A stretch of DNA of 64,000 nucleotides. Source: Caenorhabditis remanei (taxonomy: Eukaryota; Nematoda; Chromadorea; Rhabditida; Rhabditidae). The stretch is from the NCBI RefSeq assembly GCF_010183535.1, contig NC_071330.1, forward strand, positions 15,481,717-15,545,716, written 5' to 3'. Both the position numbers and the translations under genes were made by a program. This document shows positions 23,201 to 40,733 of the stretch, piece after piece. Below the pieces are notes generated by a model. The model worked only from the letters and a program-made list of their open reading frames with translations, did no database searches and was not told where the DNA came from. Positions within the stretch are counted from its first letter, which is position 1, and each line of letters opens with the position of its first letter.

Positions 23201-23722
23201 GTTTTTTTTTTCGAAATTTTTTCGAAATTCCGCATTTTTCTCATTTTTCATGCGTATAAGTTGATTTTAAGTTTGAAATGCGTAGAATTTTCAAAAATTC
23301 TATTTAAAATATATTTGACATAGGCTGAAAATTATTGAAACTATAAATTTTAAAAAACCATTTGACCCCGGATATGACACACGCCGTGGTGAAACCAAGC
23401 AAAAAGATAAAACCCAAAACTTTTTCCCCTTCTTCCTGTCAAAAATTTCTCCCTTCAAATCTCCCAGTGAGAGCAACTGTCCCCCCTCTGTGTCTCTGCG
23501 TCTCTCACGCCCAACAACACTCTCTCGTCGCCGTGTAGAAGAAATAAGAAGAATGTCACAAAATGTATCAAAAGGTCGAAGATTGATGGAGGAAGGACTG
23601 ATAGGAGTTGAGATTTATTGATGTTGATGACAAATTTTGAAAAAAGAAGATCATTTTTTTAAAAAGGGACAAAAAATTAAAATGGGGGAGTATACTCATT
23701 ATTATACTCATTTGAAAGATGT
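23201..23722. other. Left flank of the palindrome
   Basis: No gene. A TCTGCGTCTCTC motif lies near 23493. The last bases (TTATACTCATTTGAAAGATG then T) are a half-unit of the dispersed host family, interrupted by the insertion at 23723. Confidence 0.6.
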
Positions 23723-24111
23723 CAGAGAGGTATGGGGGTGTGCTAAGGTAACGCCCAGGGGAGGAGCGAGGGGGTCCATGAGTCATTGACAGCAGGGAAA
23801 CTGTATTTCCCACAAGATTGTTTATTTGTTTATTGTTTATTTTTAATTAATTATCAATTATTTTGTTTTAACTAATTAGTTCTCAATCGTTAATTAGTAT
23901 TTCATTAATTAGTTCAAGTAATTAAGAAAGTAACTGATAATTCCAGAAGTTTGACACGTGAACAGTTGATACACTTAATTCATTTTTGTTTTGAAACATG
24001 AACTTGATTCACAATGTTATTTTCAGAAAATGGGTGTTTTAACCACAAATTACCATTTTCGAGCATTTTCAACCTTTTTCGAGGTTTTAACAGAAACTTA
24101 CCACTAATCAA

Positions 24112-24365
24112 GCATCTGAAAAGGGGCGGAGCCTAATAAAATAGTATTTAAGGAAACCTAGGCCCACCTACATTGTCATTCTGAGCAATAAATAATGTTA
24201 TTCCCAGAAAACGGAGAGTTTTAGCAACAAATTGTTACTTTTGCGCATTTCCACTCATTTTCAACGTTTTCATGGTGATAGAGCACTAATCAGGCATCTG
24301 AAAAGGGGCGGAGCCTAATAAAATAGTATTTAAGGAAACCTAGGCCCACCTACATTGTCATTCTG
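24112..24365 (+). promoter_or_regulatory. Tandemly duplicated core promoter of the small gene (left arm)
   Basis: A segment of roughly 180 bp is duplicated in tandem. The 72-bp core of each copy (24112-24183 and 24294-24365) is essentially identical: AAGGGGCGGAGCC, then a TATA-like TATTTAAG (24145, 24327), then GTCATTCTG 30 bp downstream (24175, 24357). The upstream parts of each copy have diverged strongly. Only the inner copy is followed by the GTGAGT donor of the 5' UTR intron, so it is the likelier start. The GTCATTC element recurs at the polymerase promoter. Confidence 0.65.
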
Positions 24366-24462
24366 TGCAATAACTAGTGTGAGTTTACTTTCATTTATTT
24401 ATGATTATTGTTTTCAACTTTTGAATATTCATTCTCGAATAACAACACATATGTTCCAGAAA

Positions 24463-25016
24463 ATGGCTAAAAGAGCATTGTTGGTCATTTCACATGATAA
24501 AGTTCAAATAGATGATCTTACACTTCCATCATCTGATGAATCATCTTCCGATCAAGTAGATGTCAAGAATAATCTTCCGAGTCAAAAGGTATATAAAAAT
24601 AAGAAAGTTTCAATCTACATATATTTCTATTTCAGCCAGAGTCTAAAAACATTGTAAGAGTTTTGAGTAAGACATGTGACGAACCAAAAGGAAAGTTTCA
24701 AGGAGCGATTGCAACTGTTCGTCTTCTTCTTGAACTACCGCCAGCCTTGATTTTGCTCGACTCAGAAAAATTCGGAGAATGTGCAGTCAAACTTATGAAA
24801 ACTCATAACCCGTTTAAATCTGACCGTTCCATTGTATCCATCGCCATCGAAGGAGATGACAATGTAAGCAATGTGTCTACTCAATTCAAACCAATAGGAA
24901 ACATCAAACCTGTAGATGTTGCTCGTTGTATTGAAGACGCGGACCATGAAATAGACCTTGGTCTTCGACAGAAGACAGTAATCTTCACATATTTGAATCC
25001 ACCAAGCTCAAATTGA
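24463..25016 (+). CDS. Stand-alone paralogue of the polymerase N-terminal domain, 168 aa (left arm)
   Basis: Two exons, 24463-24588 and 24636-25016, join in phase. A 5' UTR intron probably runs from GTGAGT near 24378 to ACAG-type acceptor TTCCAG just before AAATGG. The N-terminus is short and acidic (PSSDESSSDQVD). The rest aligns with residues 14-160 of the polymerase: RVLSKTCDEPKGKFQG versus RILTKHAEDANGRFNG, then a LELPPA/LELSPA block, NPFK/DPFK, and TYLNPPSSN/TYLNPPNGS. I recognise no known fold. Position first in the arm and shared promoter architecture suggest a replication partner, possibly a terminal, primer or DNA-binding protein; that is inference. The frame is intact in both arms. 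Confidence 0.75.
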
Positions 25017-25934
25017 TTACTATAACAACTTTGTGTTGTTTTTATTCTATTTTATCAGAATTTTGGTATTTTTCTTGTTCTTGTATCATTAATCTATGTA
25101 CTCTTTAGTTATTTTGCAGTATCTATATAAATTTTGTATATTTCCAAAGAAGTGAAAGTGTGGAATGTTACATAAAAAGATACATGTATGAAGAACACTA
25201 TCCAAGTTATGCTAAAGTTAAAAATGGAATTTGTATTTTGCTGTCGCTTCATCTCCAGGTCACTTGTTGTGGCCCTCCGACTTGCTGGATCGTGATGTTG
25301 TGTCATTATATGGGAAAGGAATGAGAAGAAATTAATTCAAGATTTCAAGACCGAGAAGTTCAGTGGAGCAGGTTTGCATTGTACGTAACGTAGAAATTTT
25401 TAGCATTTTTGCCATCGCTTCATCTCCAGGTCACTTGTTGTGACCCTCCGATTTGCTCGATTATGGTGTTGTGTTGTTGTATGGGAAAGGGATGAGAAAA
25501 CTTCAACTGAGTTCAGTAGAGCAGGTTTGCATTTCACACAGCCTAGAAATCTAAACAAGTGGATCCGAGAAAATCACGGTGATATTGCATTTTTATGGAG
25601 AAACTTGCGAAAGTGACAATTATTGGACGTATGGTGATAGAATGATCAAAAATCGTAAAGTTCAGCATTTGGTACTTTTTTGAAATAAGTGACGTCATCG
25701 CTTTAAACAATTACAAGATATGACGTCATGGAATGAAAAGGTAGAAAAAGTTTCAAAACCAGTAATTATAGCTAAATACCACGTATTTCCTATATTCCCA
25801 TTAGTATCATATGCTATGGAGTGATGAGAAACTTGAAAAATGACGATAATCGGGCGTATGACGGTGAAACGATCAAGAATGGTAGAATTCTGCATAAAAT
25901 AAGATATAAGGCGAATATCAGCCACCCGGAGGGG
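25017..25934 (+). promoter_or_regulatory. Intergenic control region with tandem repeats and TGACGTCA sites (left arm)
   Basis: About 920 bp between the two genes. A unit of about 170 bp is tandemly repeated; it contains TCGCTTCATCTCCAGGTCAC followed by TTGTTG at 25244-25269 and again at 25415-25440. A second pair of related segments lies at about 25599-25675 and 25827-25900 (landmarks GAGAAACTTG and GATCAA). Two perfect TGACGTCA palindromes, the CREB/ATF-type site, lie at 25690-25697 and 25721-25728. The arrangement looks regulatory or replicative. Confidence 0.55.
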
Positions 25935-25968
25935 TATATAAGGGAACATTTTTGACAGAGAGTCATTC
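25935..25968 (+). promoter_or_regulatory. Core promoter of the polymerase gene (left arm)
   Basis: A canonical TATATAAG box at 25935-25942 is followed 27 bp later by GTCATTC at 25962-25968, the same pairing seen at the small gene. A TTTA tandem repeat follows in the leader near 26011-26037, before the ATG-ATG at 26049. Confidence 0.65.
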
Positions 25969-26048
25969 ATTACGCACTTTACAAGTGACGGTAGCTCGGC
26001 TCTGCTCTTTCTTATTTATTTATTTATTTATTTATTTTTCAAGACCGT

Positions 26049-29000
26049 ATGATGGATTCGAAACTACATGAGAGCGACGAAGAAGTGGTAAGAGAAATCA
26101 CTATTTTTACTACTTTTCATTGAAAATTGTATCAGGTACAAGCGGGAGGTGCCAATGTTCGAATTTTGACAAAACATGCTGAGGATGCAAACGGAAGATT
26201 TAATGGACATGTCAACACAGTAACACTTTCTCTCGAACTTTCACCAGCGATGACGTCCGATCCACGTGGGGCAGAACTATTTGCAGACACGCTGATTGGA
26301 CTAGTAAAAAGAAATGACCCATTCAAAACACCACAGACTAGAGCAGGATTCAACTTTGAGTCCTCAGAGTTTAATGAGGCTGTTGGAATTCCATTCCAAA
26401 AAATTGACCACATGTCAGCTTCAAAGATTGTGGAAAATATGGCGAAGATGTCACAATCAAGTAGATCCCCACTCGAGCTAGAAGATCGCAAACTGACTAT
26501 GAGGATCACATACCTCAATCCACCGAACGGAAGTGGAAAACGGAAGATCAATACAGGAGATATTTTGGAACTTACCGCATTTGAGAAGAAGAAAAGGACA
26601 GAAGATACCATTGACGAACCATGTTGTGAGGGTAAATGTGTGCTAGAAACAAAACAAACGAGATCAAATATAATGCCGAATGAAGGTAACAAAATCATAT
26701 AGCTTTATTACAATAATCATGTTTATTTCAGTACTCGAAAATTGCCTAGTTCATGCACTGTATCAAACTCTTAAGTATCAAGAATGGAAACAAAATAGGA
26801 CCATCGAAAATCTAAACAAGTACCGCAATTCCGTTAGAAAAACATATAAGCGTCCAGGATTTTGTCCAGAAGTATATAATGCAGTGAATGATATGAAAGA
26901 GGTAAAGTATGACTGTGATATATTATTAAACAAGTTTTTATTTCAGAGAGCAGGAATGACGAAATCTAGTGATTTTGACAGACTAGATATAGAACAATTT
27001 CAGAAAACTGTATTTGCAAGAACACACCAAATAGTTGTCTTTGTTGAAAATTCAACTACACCATATTATATGGGTCCATATGTCGGTCCAAGTAAACAAC
27101 TGGTTTTGTACCTGTCTAAAGGACACTTCAGTGGTGTGAGAAGTATCTGTGCCCTTCTTAAGACAGAATATTATTGTTTTTTGTGTAACACAAAGTACAA
27201 AGATGCATCTTCGCACTACAACTGCCCACTAATTCACCGCGTGTGTGGCCAGAAGAACTGCACTATTTCGAATGAAGATGAAGAAATTCGTTGTAACAAG
27301 TGCACAATCAAATTCCGATCTCGATTATGCTTTGAAAATCACTTGAAAAACGGTAACAAAATATAATTTTAAAGTAGCTGATATTTGTTTCCAGGGCCTA
27401 AGAACGGAAAAAGTCGCTGTCAACACACACAAGTTTGCAAGAAATGTGGAGAAGCGTATTATACAAACAAAAACAAGGAAGGCCACAAGTGTGGAGAGAA
27501 ATGGTGTTACCGATGTAACTGTAAAAGAGCAAAAAATCATCAATGCATTATGCCTACTTCAACGAAAAATGAGAAGAGATTGACAAGACGTCGAGTATTT
27601 TTTGACATTGAGGTATTATCAAAGCCTAAGTGTATTTTTGTTAATGTATTGTTTTTAGAGTAGAGCAGATGAAAAGACAGGTCAACAGCATGCAGTACTC
27701 TTTGTGGCACTTCGTTGTTGTCCAGAATGTTCTTCATCAATACCTAAAGCTCTTCAAGATGCCTGGAAAGAAACTTGTAAAAAATGTGCACCAGATGGAA
27801 GATTAAAAGTTATTGAATGTGTTACCATTAAGAATAGAAAAGTTGATGTTGCTTCTGAACTAACCGAATGGCTCTTTGCGGATCATCACAAAGGAAGTGT
27901 TTTAGTTGCACACAATGCATCTGGGTAACTTTTGATTACTTGGAAAACATTATAATCACTACTTTTCAGATATGATGCACAATTCATACTGGAGAAGATG
28001 ATAGCAAGTAACAAAGCAGCACCACATCTTATACTGGACGGCACTAAATTAATTTTCATGGAGCATAATGGTGTGCGATTGTTGGATTCTATGAAATTTT
28101 TGACAATGAGTCTTTCTGCTTTAGGAAAAGCATTTGAAATTGACTCAGTCAAAGGGTGAGTGATAATTATTCTAACTAAAATAAAATATACTTTTCCAGA
28201 GATTTCCCCGTACTTTTTATCAAACCAGAACATTACGACTACAATGGCAATATGCCAGAAGACAAATGGTACAACTTGGGAAACAAACCTTCTTCTGTTA
28301 AGAAACAAATCATGAATTTTCTTGAAAATGAGAGAAATGCAAACAAAACATTTAATTTTGTTGATGAAATCATGAGGTATTGCTACAATGATGTTTATAT
28401 TCTTGCCAAAGCAATGAATAATTTCGAAACAGAGTTTGAAGCTATGACCAATGTGTGTCTTCTGGAGGTAAATCATTTTCCATTTAATACAAAACTAAAT
28501 ATAAATATTTAGGAGTCAACAACAGCTGCTTCTGCTGCCGCACTAGTTTTTCGAAGAAACCACTTGGTTTCTGAAAAACCGATTGTCTTGGATGCAAAGC
28601 CATCTGTTTCTATAAACAGTTCAGTAATAAGCCAAAAATACTTGGCATGGTTTGGAAGAAAAGAAGGAGTTCAGGTTAACATGTCTACCACATATGGCGA
28701 GCAAAAAGTAATTTTGAAAAGATAAAAGCAAATTTAAATGAATATTTACAGATTGGTGAACACCGCGTAGATGGTTTTGTCTCTCCCTGTGAAAAATTTC
28801 CGAAGGGACTGATTATCGAATTCTTTGTAAGTTTACACAATTCTTGTTAAAATCACTATTGTTTTTATTTTCAGGGATGTTACTGGCATGCACATAGCTG
28901 TACCTACACAAACTCTTCCATGATTGGTAGCGAAAATGGTCAAGAAATTTGGGATAGAGACGAAAAAAGATTGAATAGTCTTAAAGAAAAACATCCAGTT

Positions 29001-30812
29001 AAAGTAGTATGGGAGTGTGAAGTTAAACGAGAACTGTTGATTGACCCTGAAATGGCAGAATTCTTCGACAACTATGAACCAATTGTAAGTTATATAACTA
29101 TTAATCCATAAAATAATTCCATTCATCAGGGAATTTTACATTGTGAGAAGTCTCTTGTCGGTGGTAGAACGGAAGTTTTCAAGTTGTACGCCAATAACAC
29201 TGCAAAAGTTCTGCGATATTTGGATGTAGTCAGGTAATTTAAAATACCAGTACTCAATAAATAACTAATTTCCAGTTTGTATCCCACGGTCATGAAACAT
29301 GAGGCTTTTCCGATCGGACCCCCTGAAAATGTACCACAATCCATAATGAAAGTACCTATGAAGAAACCTGAAGATATAAAGTTTCGAGGGTTCATGAGTT
29401 GTAGAGTACTCCCACCCCGACAGTTGAAGCTGCCTGTCTTGCCAATCAAGTATGGAGGTAAACTGCTATTTGGACTATGTAGATGTAAGTTAAATTAAAT
29501 TTATGATGACAATGTTTTTCATGTGTGCAGGTTGTGCAAAGAGGATGAGTAACACATCTTGCAACCACTCTGATGAAGAACGAGCATTTAATGGCACCTT
29601 CACGACAGTAGAACTGCAGAAAGCCCTCAAGCTTGGTTACACTATACTTGAAGCTTACCACGTTAGTTCCAAATGGCACGATTGTTTGAAATTTTGAAAT
29701 TTTACAGGGAATAAAATACAACCACTGGGTTCAAAATGATGCAACCGGAGAAGGTGGACTGTTCACCAGCTATATAAATCAAATGATGGAGGAGAAAATA
29801 GTATGTTGAGTCCTATAGTGACATAAAATGGACTTATATTATTTCAGTATAGTTCTGGCTGGCCATCAAATGTCATCACAGATGCTCAGAAAGATGCGTA
29901 CTGCAAAGCATATTTTGACAAGGAACAAATTCGTCTCACAGACTACTCGCGGTTTGTGAAAAATCCAGGAAAGAGAGCCGTAGCTAAACTGATGCTCAAC
30001 TCATTGGTAATACTCTGACTCATTAACTTCTATAATTTTGAAATTTTTCAGTGGGGGAAATTCGCACAAAACGTTGATCGAGAGACCACGGAAATCGTTA
30101 TAGATCCTATGGAATTTTGGAAACTTGTCTATGATACAAACGTGGTCATTTCCGTTGTACGTTGTGTGAATGACGTTCTGGTTGTGAAATACAGAAAGCA
30201 GCATGAAACACTCCAGAGCTTAAAAACAAGTGCCATGCAACTTGCATCCTTCACAACATCTTATGCAAGACTTCGTTTGTATAGATTCATGGAATTGGTT
30301 GGAGGAAAAAACATCATCTACACAGGTTTGTTATTGCGAAACAACTAAAAAATATAACTTGCATTTTCATAGACACCGATTCCATAATCTATTCAGTACC
30401 TGCCGGTACGGAAGATCCGCTGAAAGATGAAGTCGGCTCTTATTTGGGGCAACTCACTGACGAGCTGAATGGTGAAATGACAGAATTCGTGAGCCTTGGT
30501 CCAAAAACTTACTGCTATAAGGATCGGCTTGACAACAAGGAAGAAAAAATTGTGAGGAAAGCTAAAGGAATCATCATGAACTCACAAGTGGAGAAAGAGG
30601 TCAATTTTGAAAAGATGAAAATCATGGTGGACGAAGCAATCGAAAATGCAGAGGCCCGTACAACTCTCTACCTACCACAACACACTATTCGTAGAGATAA
30701 CTCTCACAAAATGTATAGTCAAAACATTAAAAAAGTGTTTAAATATACATTTAACAAAAGAAGACTTTTGGCCGATGGTACTACATTACCATTTGGTTAC
30801 TGTCAACTTTGA
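26049..30812 (+). CDS. Protein-primed-type family B DNA polymerase, 18 exons, 1330 aa (left arm)
   Basis: Exons: 26049-26087, 26136-26685, 26732-26901, 26947-27352, 27395-27612, 27659-27924, 27970-28155, 28200-28467, 28513-28707, 28752-28826, 28875-29084, 29130-29233, 29276-29484, 29531-29661, 29708-29800, 29848-30006, 30052-30325, 30373-30812. All phases agree and the total is 3993 nt. Residues 1-196 form a domain shared with the small gene. About 300-450 is Cys/His-rich with several CxxC and zinc-finger-like groups. Exonuclease motifs: FFDIE (D459, E461), HNASGYD (D552), YCYND (D676). A GCYWHAHSC motif (792) is typical of animal Maverick-type enzymes. Polymerase motifs: DVVSLYP (D893), KLMLNSLWG (K1087), DTDS (1185-1188). 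Every catalytic residue is present, so the enzyme looks functional. Introns are about 42-57 bp, unlike the long host introns. It probably replicates the element. Confidence 0.9.
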
Positions 30813-31717
30813 ATATAATTATTTATGTTTGATTTTATAAAAATAAATGTTATATTTTGACAAAATTCTGAAAAAAAAACGAAAAAGTCGATTACTGAAT
30901 TTGTATTTTCCCAAAATTGTCATTTTTGTCAAGAAATTATACTTTTTGTCAAGAAATTATACTTTTCGAAACATTTCGAAACTACGGACACTTTTTCTTG
31001 TTGGGCAAGATGCCAACATGACGTCATCGAAACGGACGCGAGAGAGAGAAATGTTTTCATTTCTCCCACACCCCACATTAGCAACAAGTGACCTGGTGAT
31101 GAAACGGTAGCAAACTGCTTAGCTTTCCCTTCACCACTCCTCACCGGAGTGATTCAGTGGTCAGATTTTTGAAAAAAAAAGTGTCTGCGTTGTGAGAATC
31201 CAATCTGAAATTTTGACCCAAACCATTGTGTATTCCAAATTTTGTGCAAAAGTATTTTATGTTGGTGTTCACTATTCCAAATTCGCCTCATTTTTTCTGT
31301 TTATTTTTAGTTTTTGTTCCACACTACCAATATTTCCATTCCAAAACTCCAAAAAATAGTGCAAAAATACCGTAACGCGAAAAGTATTTTGAGTTGACAG
31401 ATTCTATTCGAAATTTTACCCCACACCAAGAAAGAAGACGGCATACACCATGACTCATCCCATTTTCCATTCCATTTCTTGTCCCGTACCAAGACGAAGA
31501 CACACAATGACTCACAACGCGCAAAATTTCCACCAGCAAAAAGTACTTTTTGTTCACTAATCCGAGAAAATTCGAAGAGTTATCGCTTCGACACCTATAA
31601 ATTCGGAATCTACGCAAAATTTTGTTCTAGAAAAATACCATATCGGGATATTTTCAAAAAAAAAAAAAAAAAAATGGAACCGCTAAGGATATACGAGAGA
31701 ATTGTGGCCTACATCTG
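30813..31717. other. Inner non-coding part of left arm
   Basis: A polyadenylation signal AATAAA lies at 30842-30847. A third perfect TGACGTCA is at 31019-31026. An inverted, slightly diverged copy of the 26-bp intergenic motif (CAACAAGTGACCTGG...) is at 31082-31106. The rest has loosely repeated phrases around GCGCAAAA and AAAAGTA and ends near an 18-base A run. An antisense open frame (31617-31324) has no recognisable domain. Confidence 0.6.
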
Positions 31718-32131
31718 AGATGCAGCCATTCTCTCTTCCCTACCCTACCCTACCCTACCCTTCCCTACCCTACCCTACCCTACCCTTACCCTCCAAAATT
31801 GTGCAAAAATGCAAAAATTATGTTAAAAATTATGAAATATCGTTTCGAGACCCAAAAATTCGAAATCTACGCAAAAATCCAGTCTAGAAAAATACCATAT
31901 CGGTATTTTTCAGAAAAATGTTTAAGGATGCGCTAAGGATGCGCTTAAAGGCTTTAATGGACCACCCGTGAGAAAATGATGCGCATCCTAGGGACTACAC
32001 ATCACGTGAGAGACGCAGACATGGTGGTCCCGCGAGGGAGCAAACATAGCGAAAGAGTGTGTGAGTGCGAGAGACGCAGACATTCCCTCTCCTCCCCCTT
32101 AGGCTAAGTGACCAAAGATCAAACTGTGTTC
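31718..32131. other. Unique spacer at the centre of the palindrome
   Basis: 414 bp, the only non-palindromic part. It has a (CCCTA)n array with CCCTT interruptions (31738-31792). A diverged copy of the adjacent inner arm end follows: 31841-31920 resembles about 31581-31660, sharing ATCTACGCAAAA and TAGAAAAATACCATATCG. Short GATGCGC repeats come next, then two GAGAGACGCAGACA motifs (about 32008 and 32069), a motif also found in host flanks. No coding capacity. Confidence 0.75.
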
Positions 32132-33036
32132 CAGATGTAGGCCACAATTCTCTCGTATATCCTTAGCGGTTCCATTTTTTTTTTTTTTTTTTTGAAAATA
32201 TCCCGATATGGTATTTTTCTAGAACAAAATTTTGCGTAGATTCCGAATTTATAGGTGTCGAAGCGATAACTCTTCGAATTTTCTCGGATTAGTGAACAAA
32301 AAGTACTTTTTGCTGGTGGAAATTTTGCGCGTTGTGAGTCATTGTGTGTCTTCGTCTTGGTACGGGACAAGAAATGGAATGGAAAATGGGATGAGTCATG
32401 GTGTATGCCGTCTTCTTTCTTGGTGTGGGGTAAAATTTCGAATAGAATCTGTCAACTCAAAATACTTTTCGCGTTACGGTATTTTTGCACTATTTTTTGG
32501 AGTTTTGGAATGGAAATATTGGTAGTGTGGAACAAAAACTAAAAATAAACAGAAAAAATGAGGCGAATTTGGAATAGTGAACACCAACATAAAATACTTT
32601 TGCACAAAATTTGGAATACACAATGGTTTGGGTCAAAATTTCAGATTGGATTCTCACAACGCAGACACTTTTTTTTTCAAAAATCTGACCACTGAATCAC
32701 TCCGGTGAGGAGTGGTGAAGGGAAAGCTAAGCAGTTTGCTACCGTTTCATCACCAGGTCACTTGTTGCTAATGTGGGGTGTGGGAGAAATGAAAACATTT
32801 CTCTCTCTCGCGTCCGTTTCGATGACGTCATGTTGGCATCTTGCCCAACAAGAAAAAGTGTCCGTAGTTTCGAAATGTTTCGAAAAGTATAATTTCTTGA
32901 CAAAAAGTATAATTTCTTGACAAAAATGACAATTTTGGGAAAATACAAATTCAGTAATCGACTTTTTCGTTTTTTTTTCAGAATTTTGTCAAAATATAAC
33001 ATTTATTTTTATAAAATCAAACATAAATAATTATAT

Positions 33037-36000
33037 TCAAAGTTGACAGTAACCAAATGGTAATGTAGTACCATCGGCCAAAAGTCTTCTTTTGTTAAAT
33101 GTATATTTAAACACTTTTTTAATGTTTTGACTATACATTTTGTGAGAGTTATCTCTACGAATAGTGTGTTGTGGTAGGTAGAGAGTTGTACGGGCCTCTG
33201 CATTTTCGATTGCTTCGTCCACCATGATTTTCATCTTTTCAAAATTGACCTCTTTCTCCACTTGTGAGTTCATGATGATTCCTTTAGCTTTCCTCACAAT
33301 TTTTTCTTCCTTGTTGTCAAGCCGATCCTTATAGCAGTAAGTTTTTGGACCAAGGCTCACGAATTCTGTCATTTCACCATTCAGCTCGTCAGTGAGTTGC
33401 CCCAAATAAGAGCCGACTTCATCTTTCAGCGGATCTTCCGTACCGGCAGGTACTGAATAGATTATGGAATCGGTGTCTATGAAAATGCAAGTTATATTTT
33501 TTAGTTGTTTCGCAATAACAAACCTGTGTAGATGATGTTTTTTCCTCCAACCAATTCCATGAATCTATACAAACGAAGTCTTGCATAAGATGTTGTGAAG
33601 GATGCAAGTTGCATGGCACTTGTTTTTAAGCTCTGGAGTGTTTCATGCTGCTTTCTGTATTTCACAACCAGAACGTCATTCACACAACGTACAACGGAAA
33701 TGACCACGTTTGTATCATAGACAAGTTTCCAAAATTCCATAGGATCTATAACGATTTCCGTGGTCTCTCGATCAACGTTTTGTGCGAATTTCCCCCACTG
33801 AAAAATTTCAAAATTATAGAAGTTAATGAGTCAGAGTATTACCAATGAGTTGAGCATCAGTTTAGCTACGGCTCTCTTTCCTGGATTTTTCACAAACCGC
33901 GAGTAGTCTGTGAGACGAATTTGTTCCTTGTCAAAATATGCTTTGCAGTACGCATCTTTCTGAGCATCTGTGATGACATTTGATGGCCAGCCAGAACTAT
34001 ACTGAAATAATATAAGTCCATTTTATGTCACTATAGGACTCAACATACTATTTTCTCCTCCATCATTTGATTTATATAGCTGGTGAACAGTCCACCTTCT
34101 CCGGTTGCATCATTTTGAACCCAGTGGTTGTATTTTATTCCCTGTAAAATTTCAAAATTTCAAACAATCGTGCCATTTGGAACTAACGTGGTAAGCTTCA
34201 AGTATAGTGTAACCAAGCTTGAGGGCTTTCTGCAGTTCTACTGTCGTGAAGGTGCCATTAAATGCTCGTTCTTCATCAGAGTGGTTGCAAGATGTGTTAC
34301 TCATCCTCTTTGCACAACCTGCACACATGAAAAACATTGTCATCATAAATTTAATTTAACTTACATCTACATAGTCCAAATAGCAGTTTACCTCCATACT
34401 TGATTGGCAAGACAGGCAGCTTCAACTGTCGGGGTGGGAGTACTCTACAACTCATGAACCCTCGAAACTTTATATCTTCAGGTTTCTTCATAGGTACTTT
34501 CATTATGGATTGTGGTACATTTTCAGGGGGTCCGATCGGAAAAGCCTCATGTTTCATGACCGTGGGATACAAACTGGAAATTAGTTATTTATTGAGTACT
34601 GGTATTTTAAATTACCTGACTACATCCAAATATCGCAGAACTTTTGCAGTGTTATTGGCGTACAACTTGAAAACTTCCGTTCTACCACCGACAAGAGACT
34701 TCTCACAATGTAAAATTCCCTGATGAATGGAATTATTTTATGGATTAATAGTTATATAACTTACAATTGGTTCATAGTTGTCGAAGAATTCTGCCATTTC
34801 AGGGTCAATCAACAGTTCTCGTTTAACTTCACACTCCCATACTACTTTAACTGGATGTTTTTCTTTAAGACTATTCAATCTTTTTTCGTCTCTATCCCAA
34901 ATTTCTTGACCATTTTCGCTACCAATCATGGAAGAGTTTGTGTAGGTACAGCTATGTGCATGCCAGTAACATCCCTGAAAATAAAAACAATAGTGATTTT
35001 AACAAGAATTGTGTAAACTTACAAAGAATTCGATAATCAGTCCCTTCGGAAATTTTTCACAGGGAGAGACAAAACCATCTACGCGGTGTTCACCAATCTG
35101 TAAATATTCATTTAAATTTGCTTTTATCTTTTCAAAATTACTTTTTGCTCGCCATATGTGGTAGACATGTTAACCTGAACTCCTTCTTTTCTTCCAAACC
35201 ATGCCAAGTATTTTTGGCTTATTACTGAACTGTTTATAGAAACAGATGGCTTTGCATCCAAGACAATCGGTTTTTCAGAAACCAAGTGGTTTCTTCGAAA
35301 AACTAGTGCGGCAGCAGAAGCAGCTGTTGTTGACTCCTAAATATTTATATTTAGTTTTGTATTAAATGGAAAATGATTTACCTCCAGAAGACACACATTG
35401 GTCATAGCTTCAAACTCTGTTTCGAAATTATTCATTGCTTTGGCAAGAATATAAACATCATTGTAGCAATACCTCATGATTTCATCAACAAAATTAAATG
35501 TTTTGTTTGCGTTTCTCTCATTTTCAAGAAAATTCATGATTTGTTTCTTAACAGAAGAAGGTTTGTTTCCCAAGTTGTACCATTTGTCTTCTGGCATATT
35601 GCCATTGTAGTCGTAATGTTCTGGTTTGATAAAAAGTACGGGGAAATCTCTGGAAAAGTATATTTTATTTTAGTTAGAATAATTATCACTCACCCTTTGA
35701 CTGAGTCAATTTCAAATGCTTTTCCTAAAGCAGAAAGACTCATTGTCAAAAATTTCATAGAATCCAACAATCGCACACCATTATGCTCCATGAAAATTAA
35801 TTTAGTGCCGTCCAGTATAAGATGTGGTGCTGCTTTGTTACTTGCTATCATCTTCTCCAGTATGAATTGTGCATCATATCTGAAAAGTAGTGATTATAAT
35901 GTTTTCCAAGTAATCAAAAGTTACCCAGATGCATTGTGTGCAACTAAAACACTTCCTTTGTGATGATCCGCAAAGAGCCATTCGGTTAGTTCAGAAGCAA

Positions 36001-37800
36001 CATCAACTTTTCTATTCTTAATGGTAACACATTCAATAACTTTTAATCTTCCATCTGGTGCACATTTTTTACAAGTTTCTTTCCAGGCATCTTGAAGAGC
36101 TTTAGGTATTGATGAAGAACATTCTGGACAACAACGAAGTGCCACAAAGAGTACTGCATGCTGTTGACCTGTCTTTTCATCTGCTCTACTCTAAAAACAA
36201 TACATTAACAAAAATACACTTAGGCTTTGATAATACCTCAATGTCAAAAAATACTCGACGTCTTGTCAATCTCTTCTCATTTTTCGTTGAAGTAGGCATA
36301 ATGCATTGATGATTTTTTGCTCTTTTACAGTTACATCGGTAACACCATTTCTCTCCACACTTGTGGCCTTCCTTGTTTTTGTTTGTATAATACGCTTCTC
36401 CACATTTCTTGCAAACTTGTGTGTGTTGACAGCGACTTTTTCCGTTCTTAGGCCCTGGAAACAAATATCAGCTACTTTAAAATTATATTTTGTTACCGTT
36501 TTTCAAGTGATTTTCAAAGCATAATCGAGATCGGAATTTGATTGTGCACTTGTTACAACGAATTTCTTCATCTTCATTCGAAATAGTGCAGTTCTTCTGG
36601 CCACACACGCGGTGAATTAGTGGGCAGTTGTAGTGCGAAGATGCATCTTTGTACTTTGTGTTACACAAAAAACAATAATATTCTGTCTTAAGAAGGGCAC
36701 AGATACTTCTCACACCACTGAAGTGTCCTTTAGACAGGTACAAAACCAGTTGTTTACTTGGACCGACATATGGACCCATATAATATGGTGTAGTTGAATT
36801 TTCAACAAAGACAACTATTTGGTGTGTTCTTGCAAATACAGTTTTCTGAAATTGTTCTATATCTAGTCTGTCAAAATCACTAGATTTCGTCATTCCTGCT
36901 CTCTGAAATAAAAACTTGTTTAATAATATATCACAGTCATACTTTACCTCTTTCATATCATTCACTGCATTATATACTTCTGGACAAAATCCTGGACGCT
37001 TATATGTTTTTCTAACGGAATTGCGGTACTTGTTTAGATTTTCGATGGTCCTATTTTGTTTCCATTCTTGATACTTAAGAGTTTGATACAGTGCATGAAC
37101 TAGGCAATTTTCGAGTACTGAAATAAACATGATTATTGTAATAAAGCTATATGATTTTGTTACCTTCATTCGGCATTATATTTGATCTCGTTTGTTTTGT
37201 TTCTAGCACACATTTACCCTCACAACATGGTTCGTCAATGGTATCTTCTGTCCTTTTCTTCTTCTCAAATGCGGTAAGTTCCAAAATATCTCCTGTATTG
37301 ATCTTCCGTTTTCCACTTCCGTTCGGTGGATTGAGGTATGTGATCCTCATAGTCAGTTTGCGATCTTCTAGCTCGAGTGGGGATCTACTTGATTGTGACA
37401 TCTTCGCCATATTTTCCACAATCTTTGAAGCTGACATGTGGTCAATTTTTTGGAATGGAATTCCAACAGCCTCATTAAACTCTGAGGACTCAAAGTTGAA
37501 TCCTGCTCTAGTCTGTGGTGTTTTGAATGGGTCATTTCTTTTTACTAGTCCAATCAGCGTGTCTGCAAATAGTTCTGCCCCACGTGGATCGGACGTCATC
37601 GCTGGTGAAAGTTCGAGAGAAAGTGTTACTGTGTTGACATGTCCATTAAATCTTCCGTTTGCATCCTCAGCATGTTTTGTCAAAATTCGAACATTGGCAC
37701 CTCCCGCTTGTACCTGATACAATTTTCAATGAAAAGTAGTAAAAATAGTGATTTCTCTTACCACTTCTTCGTCGCTCTCATGTAGTTTCGAATCCATCAT
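33037..37800 (-). CDS. Protein-primed-type family B DNA polymerase, second copy (right arm)
   Basis: Mirror copy of the polymerase gene at 26049-30812; each exon boundary is 63849 minus the left-arm coordinate. All splice sites, the three exonuclease motifs and polymerase motifs A, B and C are retained. The single base difference noticed is silent, so both copies predict the same 1330-residue protein. The TATATAAG box lies at 37907-37914 and the AATAAA at 33002-33007. The two copies converge on the central spacer, so read-through transcripts could be complementary. Confidence 0.9.
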
Positions 37801-38832
37801 ACGGTCTTGAAAAATAAATAAATAAATAAATAAATAAGAAAGAGCAGAGCCGAGCTACCGTCACTTGTAAAGTGCGTAATGAATGACTCTCTGTCAAAAA
37901 TGTTCCCTTATATACCCCTCCGGGTGGCTGATATTCGCCTTATATCTTATTTTATGCAGAATTCTACCATTCTTGATCGTTTCACCGTCATACGCCCGAT
38001 TATCGTCATTTTTCAAGTTTCTCATCACTCCATAGCATATGATACTAATGGGAATATAGGAAATACGTGGTATTTAGCTATAATTACTGGTTTTGAAACT
38101 TTTTCTACCTTTTCATTCCATGACGTCATATCTTGTAATTGTTTAAAGCGATGACGTCACTTATTTCAAAAAAGTACCAAATGCTGAACTTTACGATTTT
38201 TGATCATTCTATCACCATACGTCCAATAATTGTCACTTTCGCAAGTTTCTCCATAAAAATGCAATATCACCGTGATTTTCTCGGATCCACTTGTTTAGAT
38301 TTCTAGGCTGTGTGAAATGCAAACCTGCTCTACTGAACTCAGTTGAAGTTTTCTCATCCCTTTCCCATACAACAACACAACACCATAATCGAGCAAATCG
38401 GAGGGTCACAACAAGTGACCTGGAGATGAAGCGATGGCAAAAATGCTAAAAATTTCTACGTTACGTACAATGCAAACCTGCTCCACTGAACTTCTCGGTC
38501 TTGAAATCTTGAATTAATTTCTTCTCATTCCTTTCCCATATAATGACACAACATCACGATCCAGCAAGTCGGAGGGCCACAACAAGTGACCTGGAGATGA
38601 AGCGACAGCAAAATACAAATTCCATTTTTAACTTTAGCATAACTTGGATAGTGTTCTTCATACATGTATCTTTTTATGTAACATTCCACACTTTCACTTC
38701 TTTGGAAATATACAAAATTTATATAGATACTGCAAAATAACTAAAGAGTACATAGATTAATGATACAAGAACAAGAAAAATACCAAAATTCTGATAAAAT
38801 AGAATAAAAACAACACAAAGTTGTTATAGTAA

Positions 38833-39386
38833 TCAATTTGAGCTTGGTGGATTCAAATATGTGAAGATTACTGTCTTCTGTCGAAGACCAAGGTCTATTT
38901 CATGGTCCGCGTCTTCAATACAACGAGCAACATCTACAGGTTTGATGTTTCCTATTGGTTTGAATTGAGTAGACACATTGCTTACATTGTCATCTCCTTC
39001 GATGGCGATGGATACAATGGAACGGTCAGATTTAAACGGGTTATGAGTTTTCATAAGTTTGACTGCACATTCTCCGAATTTTTCTGAGTCGAGCAAAATC
39101 AAGGCTGGCGGTAGTTCAAGAAGAAGACGAACAGTTGCAATCGCTCCTTGAAACTTTCCTTTTGGTTCGTCACATGTCTTACTCAAAACTCTTACAATGT
39201 TTTTAGACTCTGGCTGAAATAGAAATATATGTAGATTGAAACTTTCTTATTTTTATATACCTTTTGACTCGGAAGATTATTCTTGACATCTACTTGATCG
39301 GAAGATGATTCATCAGATGATGGAAGTGTAAGATCATCTATTTGAACTTTATCATGTGAAATGACCAACAATGCTCTTTTAGCCAT
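38833..39386 (-). CDS. Stand-alone paralogue of polymerase N-terminal domain, second copy (right arm)
   Basis: Mirror copy of the small gene at 24463-25016; exons 39386-39261 and 39213-38833. No difference from the left copy was noticed. It carries the same acidic N-terminus and the same C-terminal TYLNPPSSN. Confidence 0.75.
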
Positions 39387-39483
39387 TTTCTGGAACATAT
39401 GTGTTGTTATTCGAGAATGAATATTCAAAAGTTGAAAACAATAATCATAAATAAATGAAAGTAAACTCACACTAGTTATTGCA

Positions 39484-39737
39484 CAGAATGACAATGTAGG
39501 TGGGCCTAGGTTTCCTTAAATACTATTTTATTAGGCTCCGCCCCTTTTCAGATGCCTGATTAGTGCTCTATCACCATGAAAACGTTGAAAATGAGTGGAA
39601 ATGCGCAAAAGTAACAATTTGTTGCTAAAACTCTCCGTTTTCTGGGAATAACATTATTTATTGCTCAGAATGACAATGTAGGTGGGCCTAGGTTTCCTTA
39701 AATACTATTTTATTAGGCTCCGCCCCTTTTCAGATGC
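39484..39737 (-). promoter_or_regulatory. Tandemly duplicated core promoter (right arm)
   Basis: Mirror copy of the duplicated promoter at 24112-24365, with both TATTTAAG and both GTCATTC elements intact. Confidence 0.6.
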
Positions 39738-40126
39738 TTGATTAGTGGTAAGTTTCTGTTAAAACCTCGAAAAAGGTTGAAAATGCTCGAAAATGGTAAT
39801 TTGTGGTTAAAACACCCATTTTCTGAAAATAACATTGTGAATCAAGTTCATGTTTCAAAACAAAAATGAATTAAGTGTATCAACTGTTCACGTGTCAAAC
39901 TTCTGGAATTATCAGTTACTTTCTTAATTACTTGAACTAATTAATGAAATACTAATTAACGATTGAGAACTAATTAGTTAAAACAAAATAATTGATAATT
40001 AATTAAAAATAAACAATAAACAAATAAACAATCTTGTGGGAAATACAGTTTCCCTGCTGTCAATGACTCATGGACCCCCTCGCTCCTCCCCTGGGCGTTA
40101 CCTTAGCACACCCCCATACCTCTCTG

Positions 40127-40733
40127 ATGTCGCCACGCAATACATTTTTTTTAAATTTTCAATCATTTTTTGGTAAAACTGATATTTAAATCATACTCAG
40201 CATGTTTTCAGCTTTCATTTGAGTATAATCATGCCTACATTCTGAAAACTTCGAATTTCGAGGTTCTGACCTCCCAACTAAAACTACTGTAACTCGATCA
40301 GATTTTGTCCAATCTCAATGAAACCTACATTTTTGAATTTAGGGCGTCAAGACGGTTCGAATGAGTATAATCATGACATACTTTTGAAAATTTCAGAAAT
40401 CGGTCCTCTGGGGGTGTCTAAAATCTCAAAAATCGAAATTTTCTAAAGTATGTCATGATTATACTCATTTAAAAGGTCTTGTTGAGCTGATTCTAAAAAT
40501 GCATACTATTTTAATTTTGGTGCAAAAATAACGAAACTACGGCAGGTTGAAATTTTCGAAGATTTTCGAAATTCTGTAACTTTTGAAATATTCAACCGAT
40601 TTTGTTTATTTTTAGCTCAAAATAACCGTAAACGCATTGACAACTCACAAAAAATATATTATTAAAGGTTGCAAAAATACAATCCATATTAATGAGACCT
40701 AGCAATTAAATACTAATTATCCCTAATTAAAAT
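40127..40733. repeat. Right flank of the palindrome, dispersed host repeats
   Basis: Starts with ATGT, then CGCCACGC, which continues the half-unit broken at 23722. Further half-units lie near 40216, 40362 and 40455. No gene until the GRXCR-like stop codon at 40734. Confidence 0.7.

What the first reader, a model, noticed from the sequence alone, without database searches (positions are those of the whole stretch)
23723..40126. A 16.4-kb near-perfect palindrome encoding an intact protein-primed-type DNA polymerase in each arm
The arms are 7995 bp each with no indels; position pairs sum to 63849 at every point checked. Maverick/Polinton elements with this polymerase type have much shorter inverted termini and many more genes. 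Here the whole element, promoters and genes included, is duplicated head-on around a 414-bp spacer. This looks like a head-to-head dimer of an approximately 8-kb linear replicon that entered the chromosome, or a new class of foldback element. Such palindromes arise naturally when a protein-primed or hairpin-ended linear DNA switches template at one end.
Basis: partly seen in the sequence, partly recalled or inferred. Interest (0 to 1): 0.95.

Follow-up and report, generated by a model that had tools for sequence, protein, structure and literature searches.

The report
Palindromic Maverick transposon lacking an integrase
A roundworm chromosome carries a 16-kilobase mirror-image jumping element that looks like half of a virus-like Maverick transposon copied head-on onto itself, one of dozens in this genome, and its centre suggests that such elements fold back and copy themselves while spreading.

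Summary
The palindrome is real: arms 23722-31717 and 32132-40127 (7996 bp, one mismatch, no indel) around a 414-bp spacer. It is a transposed element (23724-40125) with a perfect 6-bp target duplication GATGTC and Maverick-type ends (AGAGAG...). It is not unique: at least 32 mirrored loci lie in this genome (Caenorhabditis remanei). Thirteen had both ends read; 13 of 13 have perfect, different 6-bp duplications, which practically excludes an assembly artefact. Each arm holds one intact-looking protein-primed DNA polymerase gene (17 predicted exons, 1331 aa; dN/dS 0.10-0.15 between copies). No integrase or capsid hit lies inside. Full ~20-kb Mavericks with the same ends carry an integrase and are likely helpers. 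Palindromic polymerases fall in several places among full-Maverick polymerases (one clade rejected, p-AU 7e-5), so palindromes formed repeatedly. In palindromes with the window's type of ends the centre is a tiny nested Maverick; mirror symmetry runs exactly to it and fades within its terminal repeats, as expected if a nascent strand folded back there and copied itself. New variant of a known kind; not found in the searches made, but one key nematode Polinton paper could not be read.

The parts
23724..40125 (.). whole palindromic element (16,402 bp), ends AGAGAGGTATGGGG...CCCCATACCTCTCT
   Evidence: pattern hits at both ends
23718..23723 (+). left target-site duplication GATGTC
40126..40131 (+). 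right target-site duplication GATGTC
23722..31717 (+). left arm
32132..40127 (-). right arm, mirror of the left, one mismatch
24334..25016 (+). small upstream gene (two open frames); its second frame is about 31% like the N-terminal part of the polymerase protein of copy P1; no Pfam match
26052..30812 (+). protein-primed DNA polymerase gene, 17 predicted exons, 1331 aa; PF03175; motif A DVVSLYP, motif C DTDS
33037..37797 (-). mirror copy of the polymerase gene
   Evidence: symmetry about 63849; frames
38833..39515 (-). mirror copy of the small upstream gene
31696..32153 (.). central small nested Maverick-like element (458 bp) with 22-bp inverted ends AGAGAATTGTGGCCTACATCTG (a diverged form of the end motif)
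31718..32131 (.). asymmetric spacer = body of the central element; 31796-32154 is 78% identical to terminal DNA on the polymerase side of full Mavericks at C2:19.73 and C6:21.115 Mb

Best explanation
The element is a Maverick/Polinton derivative in which the polymerase half of the genome was duplicated head-on and the other half (integrase, ATPase, protease, capsid genes) was lost. Proposed cycle: (1) the element, or its Maverick ancestor, replicates as linear DNA with protein-primed ends; (2) a nascent or displaced single strand that has copied from the polymerase-side end through the polymerase reaches an inverted repeat (here the ~27-bp ends of a tiny Maverick nested downstream of the polymerase), folds back, and its 3' end copies the strand itself out to the end, giving a perfect palindrome whose loop is the body of the tiny element; (3) the palindrome keeps two good Maverick ends and its own polymerase, and inserts with a 6-bp duplication using the integrase of full Mavericks with the same ends; (4) each later round of copying makes the arms identical again, while selection keeps the polymerase working. 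Shown by sequence: the ends and duplications, no integrase or capsid hit inside, same-end full Mavericks, repeated association with different Maverick polymerases, the symmetry boundary at the inner terminal repeats, purifying selection. Inferred: the free linear DNA, fold-back priming, integrase supplied in trans.
For: Perfect, all-different 6-bp duplications in 13 of 13 palindromes with both ends read and 3 of 3 full Mavericks; ends (AG)3 or (AGT)2, the two end motifs given for vertebrate Mavericks in PMC8097293 (passages read). Of 19 mirrored polymerase pairs 0 hold a listed rve hit between the arms; of 38 unpaired polymerase loci 16 have one within 8 kb, 3.0-6.3 kb away. Full same-end Mavericks carry an rve hit. 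Polymerase tree: palindromes as one clade rejected, p-AU 7.5e-5; 8 changes, at least 6 forced by starred branches. Three palindromes are 92.5-98.7% identical in DNA to the polymerase half of particular full Mavericks, the match ending within about 120 bp of the integrase gene's 3' end. In 10 of 10 same-end centres examined, symmetry is complete up to the inner motif; in 9 of 10 the first mismatch lies 7-30 bases inside it, against 27-bp repeats in full Mavericks C6:1.61 and C4:24.59. Mismatches occur inside the inner repeats of P1-P3 but in 0 of the adjoining 40 bases. The 6-mers beside the central element are inverted, not direct, in 4 of 4 centres where I read them (P1, L027-L029), so it was there before the palindrome. 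Arm-arm divergence 0-0.13% against dS 0.04-0.58 between copies P0-P3; dN/dS 0.097-0.146. Of 57 polymerase elements 19 are mirrored, of 59 capsid loci none was accepted as such, Fisher p 2e-7; 3e-6 if the one doubtful capsid pair is counted.
Against: Centres of other clades lack the nested-end signature: C2_5.48 has an integrase remnant in its 209-bp loop and no end motif at its centre, and C2_1.27 is almost loop-free, so the fold-back seed is different or unknown there. Centres of C4_3.92 and C2_16.89 share short homology (71-89%) although their polymerases come from different Mavericks; this hints at exchange between elements and makes the number of independent fold-backs uncertain. P0's centre gave no match to that of P1-P3, so centres also turn over, and its inner motif is degenerate. 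The tree warns of long branches near the window clade and leaves that clade unresolved. One capsid pair on C76 passed the score tolerance and was set aside because its copies differ (97% and 98% identity to the query). rve hits lie just outside two palindromes: 163 bp beyond the end of C98 and 7 kb beyond C4:24.91; I read them as neighbours, untested. No free linear form, fold-back intermediate or trans integration was observed.
Confidence: 0.72

Rival explanations
1. Two-molecule template switch or recombination: two separate linear Maverick genomes (or a palindrome and a full Maverick) are joined by switching between inverted terminal repeats, rather than one strand folding back on itself.
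For: Shared centre pieces between palindromes with different polymerases; no match between the centres of P0 and P1-P3.
Against: Arms are 99.87-100% identical within copies P0-P3 while P1-P3 are about 85% identical to the window copy, so both arms come from one template; the boundary lies in one nested element's own paired repeats.
Confidence: 0.15
2. Head-to-head dimer of an ~8-kb linear replicon that later entered the chromosome.
For: The arm carries an end, a polymerase and little else; protein-primed linear replicons are known (recall).
Against: No pair of opposed ends 8-9 kb apart seen outside palindromes among the places listed (a cut list); the centre is a nested tiny Maverick (end motifs in the order + + - -); three other palindromes match ~20-kb full Mavericks closely.
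Confidence: 0.05
3. Palindromes formed in the chromosome after insertion (breakage-fusion, inverted duplication, gene conversion between arms).
For: Fold-back inverted duplications are known in yeast and human chromosomes (PMC7467729 and PMC3907307; titles and abstract starts seen in the listing).
Against: The mirrored segment ends at the element ends and is flanked by the duplication at 13 of 13 sites; P1-P3 share one centre at three loci, so the palindrome moved as a unit.
Confidence: 0.05
4. Assembly artefact (palindromic chimeric reads).
For: Long-read libraries can give palindromic reads (recall).
Against: Different flanks with perfect 6-bp duplications at 13 loci; mismatches inside the inner repeats; one centre shared by three loci.
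Confidence: 0.01

Closest known systems
Maverick/Polinton elements (Polintoviricetes)
   Same: 6-bp target duplication, (AG)n or (AGT)2 ends, protein-primed polymerase of the same family; full same-end Mavericks are in this genome
   Different: No integrase or capsid hit inside, no ATPase or protease seen; the whole body is an inverted repeat instead of a short terminal repeat (27 bp in full C6:1.61)
Snap-back / symmetrical defective genomes of linear viruses (recalled; no paper read)
   Same: Mirror-image genome that keeps one end and nearby genes, loses the rest and needs a helper
   Different: Here the polymerase is kept and under selection, and the form is inserted in chromosomes in many copies
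Foldback transposons (FB of Drosophila, Tc4 of C. elegans; recalled)
   Same: Very long inverted repeats around a short loop
   Different: Those lack a polymerase in each arm and belong to other transposase families (recall); ends and duplication here are Maverick-type
Fold-back inverted duplications in yeast and human chromosomes (PMC7467729, PMC3907307; listing only)
   Same: Single-strand hairpins proposed to prime an inverted duplication
   Different: Chromosomal events, not mobile elements

Membership tests
Maverick/Polinton | 6-bp target-site duplication | tested here: met
   Window GATGTC; 13 of 13 palindromes read
Maverick/Polinton | (AG)n or (AGT)2 ends (PMC8097293 passages) | tested here: met
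   AGAGAG at the window ends; AGTAGT in C2_5.48
Maverick/Polinton | protein-primed family B polymerase | tested here: met
   PF03175 at 1.8e-17 and 1.1e-19; best solved match phi29 polymerase 1xhx, whole-sequence E 4.1e-10, though no single stretch passes alone; relatives in Caenorhabditis and other animals. Protein priming itself is inferred from kinship
Maverick/Polinton | retroviral-type integrase (RVE) | tested here: not met
   No listed rve hit within the window element or within 19 of 19 mirrored pairs; the list gives lower bounds
Maverick/Polinton | capsid genes | tested here: not met
   No major-capsid hit in the window element and none within 6 kb of the 19 mirrored pairs
Maverick/Polinton | packaging ATPase and protease | tested here: inconclusive
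   None in the Pfam scans of 7 frames and 3 protein pieces of the arm; not searched with dedicated models
Protein-primed linear replicon | free linear DNA with protein-capped ends | not testable with these tools
   Needs DNA from worms
Foldback (FB/Tc4) elements | their own duplication length and transposase kinship | not tested
   Recall only; Maverick features were found instead

The most novel reading that the evidence does not exclude
A self-sustaining class of satellite elements in which the self-complementary hairpin/palindrome is the normal replication form: the polymerase gene sits in both arms, each copy templates its own second arm, and integration is stolen from full Mavericks. The window clade and a nine-row clade of the tree would be long-lived lineages of it rather than one-off defective copies.
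Probability: 0.4. Interest if true: 0.92.

Novelty: new variant of a known kind. Interest (0 to 1): 0.82.

Why it matters
As far as I recall, Maverick replication has never been watched directly. These palindromes look like genomic footprints of single-strand fold-back copying, formed more than once, so the protein-primed, strand-displacement model becomes testable by sequence and by looking for free palindromic DNA. They also suggest a Maverick satellite that carries its own polymerase but no integrase, and they put dozens of very long near-perfect palindromes into a normal animal genome.

Tried and rejected
A 4-bp duplication (ATGT) that I first noted at the window ends (note) was dropped when the other copies showed that the element starts at AGAGA and the duplication is 6 bp. 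Three loci taken as free-standing tiny elements (L027-L029) proved to be centres of further palindromes, since their flanks are inverted; L030 is a small element with near-matching flanks GTGTCC/CTGTCC. Assembly artefact, the 8-kb dimer, and late insertion of the central element were considered and rejected. My first polymerase model missed motif A through a misplaced splice site; corrected against copies P1-P3. The first Pfam scan of single exons gave only weak polymerase matches; the spliced pieces gave strong ones. Single C6:21135699, 96% like the C2:16886 palindrome, was expected to be its parent, but the match stops 152 bp beyond the piece already held and no inverted second arm was seen in the 8.2 kb fetched. 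Structure prediction was not used. Literature: 10 searches; among the papers listed none has a title or abstract start about palindromic Mavericks (44 papers hold both Polinton and palindrom*, 25 listed). The nematode Polinton paper (10.1093/molbev/msad274) is not held and may say something on this.
Full report
WHAT IS THERE. The window holds a near-perfect palindrome: arms 23722-31717 and 32132-40127, 7996 bp, one mismatch at 28338, no indel, 414-bp spacer. By comparison with other copies the element proper is 23724-40125. It starts AGAGAGGTATGGGG and is flanked on both sides by GATGTC (23718-23723 and 40126-40131), a perfect 6-bp target duplication.

ORGANISM. The genome search places the window at C3:15481717-15545716 of a 130.5-Mb assembly of 186 contigs. 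A protein hit named GCK72_000375 [Caenorhabditis remanei] lies on a contig of 17,247,545 bases, the length of C1 of this assembly. So it is C. remanei; strain PX506 is my recall.

A FAMILY, NOT A FREAK. PF03175 hits in this genome include 19 mirrored pairs: opposite strands, polymerases pointing inward, equal scores, 7.6-14.5 kb across. The arm DNA adds 8 more mirrored loci and the end motif 4 more; with the window that is at least 32. Arms were aligned with each other in 13: P0 (the window), P1 (C2:19.21 Mb), P2 (C4:20.22), P3 (C4:10.56), C124, C5:16.14, C2:16.89, C4:3.92, C2:5.48, C4:24.91, C1:15.15, C5:21.55 and C2:1.27, in several only over the part fetched. The others rest on mirrored hits or motifs. 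Thirteen palindromes had both ends read (P0-P3, C2:5.48 and eight): 13 of 13 have perfect 6-bp duplications, all different. So do 3 of 3 full Mavericks: TCCGGC, ATTTAT, GCCGTT.

WHAT IT CARRIES. Each arm has a small upstream gene (24334-25016) and one large gene (26052-30812). The large gene reads as 17 exons with introns of 42-81 nt, 1331 aa, no internal stop; the model requires GT-AG borders. Pieces match PF03175 at 1.8e-17 and 1.1e-19. Motif A DVVSLYP and motif C DTDS are present (motif names recalled). A profile of a polymerase piece with 14 homologues finds phi29 polymerase, the protein-primed prototype, as best solved match (1xhx, 4.1e-10 for the whole sequence, no stretch passing alone). 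PMC11071308 (section 6 and passages read) counts the C. briggsae Polinton polymerase among the protein-primed ones and treats its terminal protein as a domain of it; by analogy this gene may supply both. No listed rve or major-capsid hit falls in the element.

THE RELATIVES ARE MAVERICKS. Full ~20-kb elements with the same ends occur, for example C6:1607815-1627843, C4:24592966-24612943 and C5:18614249-18634219, each with an rve hit (the C6 copy's frame has one stop and the C5 copy's two, the C4 copy's none). The polymerase exons of the C6 copy match the window's in the same order (42-71% identity for the matching frames), with a homologue of the N-terminal segment directly upstream (38%). Its other gene names are by eye, except the capsid, which matches that of C43. 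C43, another Maverick type, gave Pfam matches to Chromo and rve in one frame, Pox_A32, Peptidase_C5 (below its cut-off) and PIF1. Of 38 unpaired polymerase loci 16 have an rve hit 3.0-6.3 kb away; 0 of 19 mirrored pairs has one inside. Two rve hits lie outside palindromes but near them: 163 bp beyond the end of C98 and 7 kb beyond C4:24.91.

REPEATED ORIGIN. A tree of 33 polymerases (19 palindromic, 11 from full Mavericks, 3 unclassified; 374 columns) needs 8 changes of the palindrome label, at least 6 forced by starred branches, and rejects one palindromic clade (p-AU 7.5e-5). Twelve of the 19 palindromic rows had their arms aligned; seven rest on mirrored hits alone. Three palindromes are near-copies of full Mavericks: C4:3.92 (92.5% DNA over 3.6 kb with C6:16.5), C2:5.48 (96.8-98.7% over about 9.5 kb with C4:1.95) and C2:16.89 (96.8-97.7% over 2.6 kb with C4:19.31). 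The match ends about 117 bp inside, 37 bp inside, and 50 bp short of the integrase frame's 3' end respectively. The last two keep integrase scraps (73-89%) further in. C2:5.48 and its full relative start with the same end AGTAGTAGG.

THE CENTRE. The exact end motif occurs four times, in the order + + - -, in 8 loci (P2, C124, C5:4.40, C5:20.64, C1:15.59, C2:3.22, C4:13.67, C6:9.37); P3 and C98 show three of the four, P0 and P1 only the outer two, their inner ones having diverged. The inner pair encloses 0.4-1 kb. I examined 10 same-end centres: P0-P3, C124, C5:4.40, C1:15.59, and L027-L029, the last three known only as centres. In 10 of 10 mirror symmetry is complete up to the inner motif (40 of 40 bases in nine; the whole arm in P0). 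In 9 of 10 the first mismatch lies 7-30 bases inside it; C1:15.59 stays symmetric past 60. Full Mavericks C6:1.61 and C4:24.59 have 27-bp terminal repeats; C5:18.61 at least 31, all that was fetched. The right end of centre L028 carries the same sequence as the left end of full C6:1.61 over about 50 bases. The window's spacer 31796-32154 is 78% identical to terminal DNA on the polymerase side of full Mavericks. So the centre is a tiny nested Maverick. Its flanking 6-mers are inverted, not direct, in the 4 centres where I read them (P1, L027, L028, L029), so it was there before the mirror was made. P1-P3 carry mismatches within the inner repeats though the arms beside them match perfectly. A strand folding back on those repeats, then copying outward, predicts this.

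MOVING AS PALINDROMES. P1-P3 share one centre (96-97% alike) at three sites with three different duplications. Arms within P0-P3 differ by 0-0.13%. The copies differ from each other by dS 0.04-0.58 with dN/dS 0.097-0.146 (Nei-Gojobori, on my gene model). So the arms are made equal again with copying, and the polymerase is under purifying selection, including among P1-P3, which already share a palindromic centre.

WHY ALWAYS THE POLYMERASE HALF? With a different marker, 59 major-capsid loci of at least 300 aa, none was accepted as palindromic, against 19 of 57 polymerase elements (Fisher p 2e-7). One capsid pair on C76 passed the score tolerance but its copies differ (97 and 98% to the query) and their positions fit two separate Mavericks; counted as a palindrome it gives p 3e-6. 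The lists hold only the best-scored places, so counts are lower bounds. I read this as a need for the polymerase in cis.

LIMITS. Free DNA, fold-back and trans integration are inferred. The other clades' centres that I read do not show a nested Maverick, so their seeds are unknown. Shared centre scraps in C4:3.92 and C2:16.89 allow exchange between elements. Other Caenorhabditis genomes could not be searched; only their proteins were seen, such as a C. brenneri protein 71% identical over 66% of the query piece. Not-in-print statements rest; msad274 was not readable.

Noticed in passing
window 1-23000 and 40200-64000: The flanks are full of a dispersed repeat (31 copies of a 78-nt unit around GATTATACTCATTTGAAAGG at 60% identity or more, and inverted copies); the palindrome's left junction lies in a similar stretch.
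   Followed up: no
C5:21371717-21383927 and C3:13394916-13407124 (G000): Short repeats in mirrored order about a centre suggest two more large palindromes without a listed polymerase hit.
   Followed up: no
C6:3693491-3708070 (G000): Mirrored fragments of a Maverick capsid gene, the only mirrored capsid pieces noticed besides the near-equal C76 pair.
   Followed up: no
window polymerase, region matching profile positions 352-412: The polymerase profile also matches Vsr mismatch endonuclease structures (1odg, 1.3e-5), perhaps an endonuclease-like domain inside the polymerase.
   Followed up: no
L036 3921359-3922954 and L035: Centres of palindromes C4:3.92 and C2:16.89 share short homologous stretches although their polymerases derive from different Mavericks.
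   Followed up: partly
window 26052-30812 against copy P1: Introns differ less (0.18) than fourfold-degenerate sites (0.30) between P0 and P1, but not between P1 and P2 (0.085 and 0.094); unexplained.
   Followed up: no
C2:1271624-1276600 (L067): A palindrome with practically no spacer: mirror mismatches only within a few bases of the centre.
   Followed up: partly
L027, L028, L029: Central elements of other palindromes are themselves rich in inverted repeats, in L027 383 nt at 99%.
   Followed up: no
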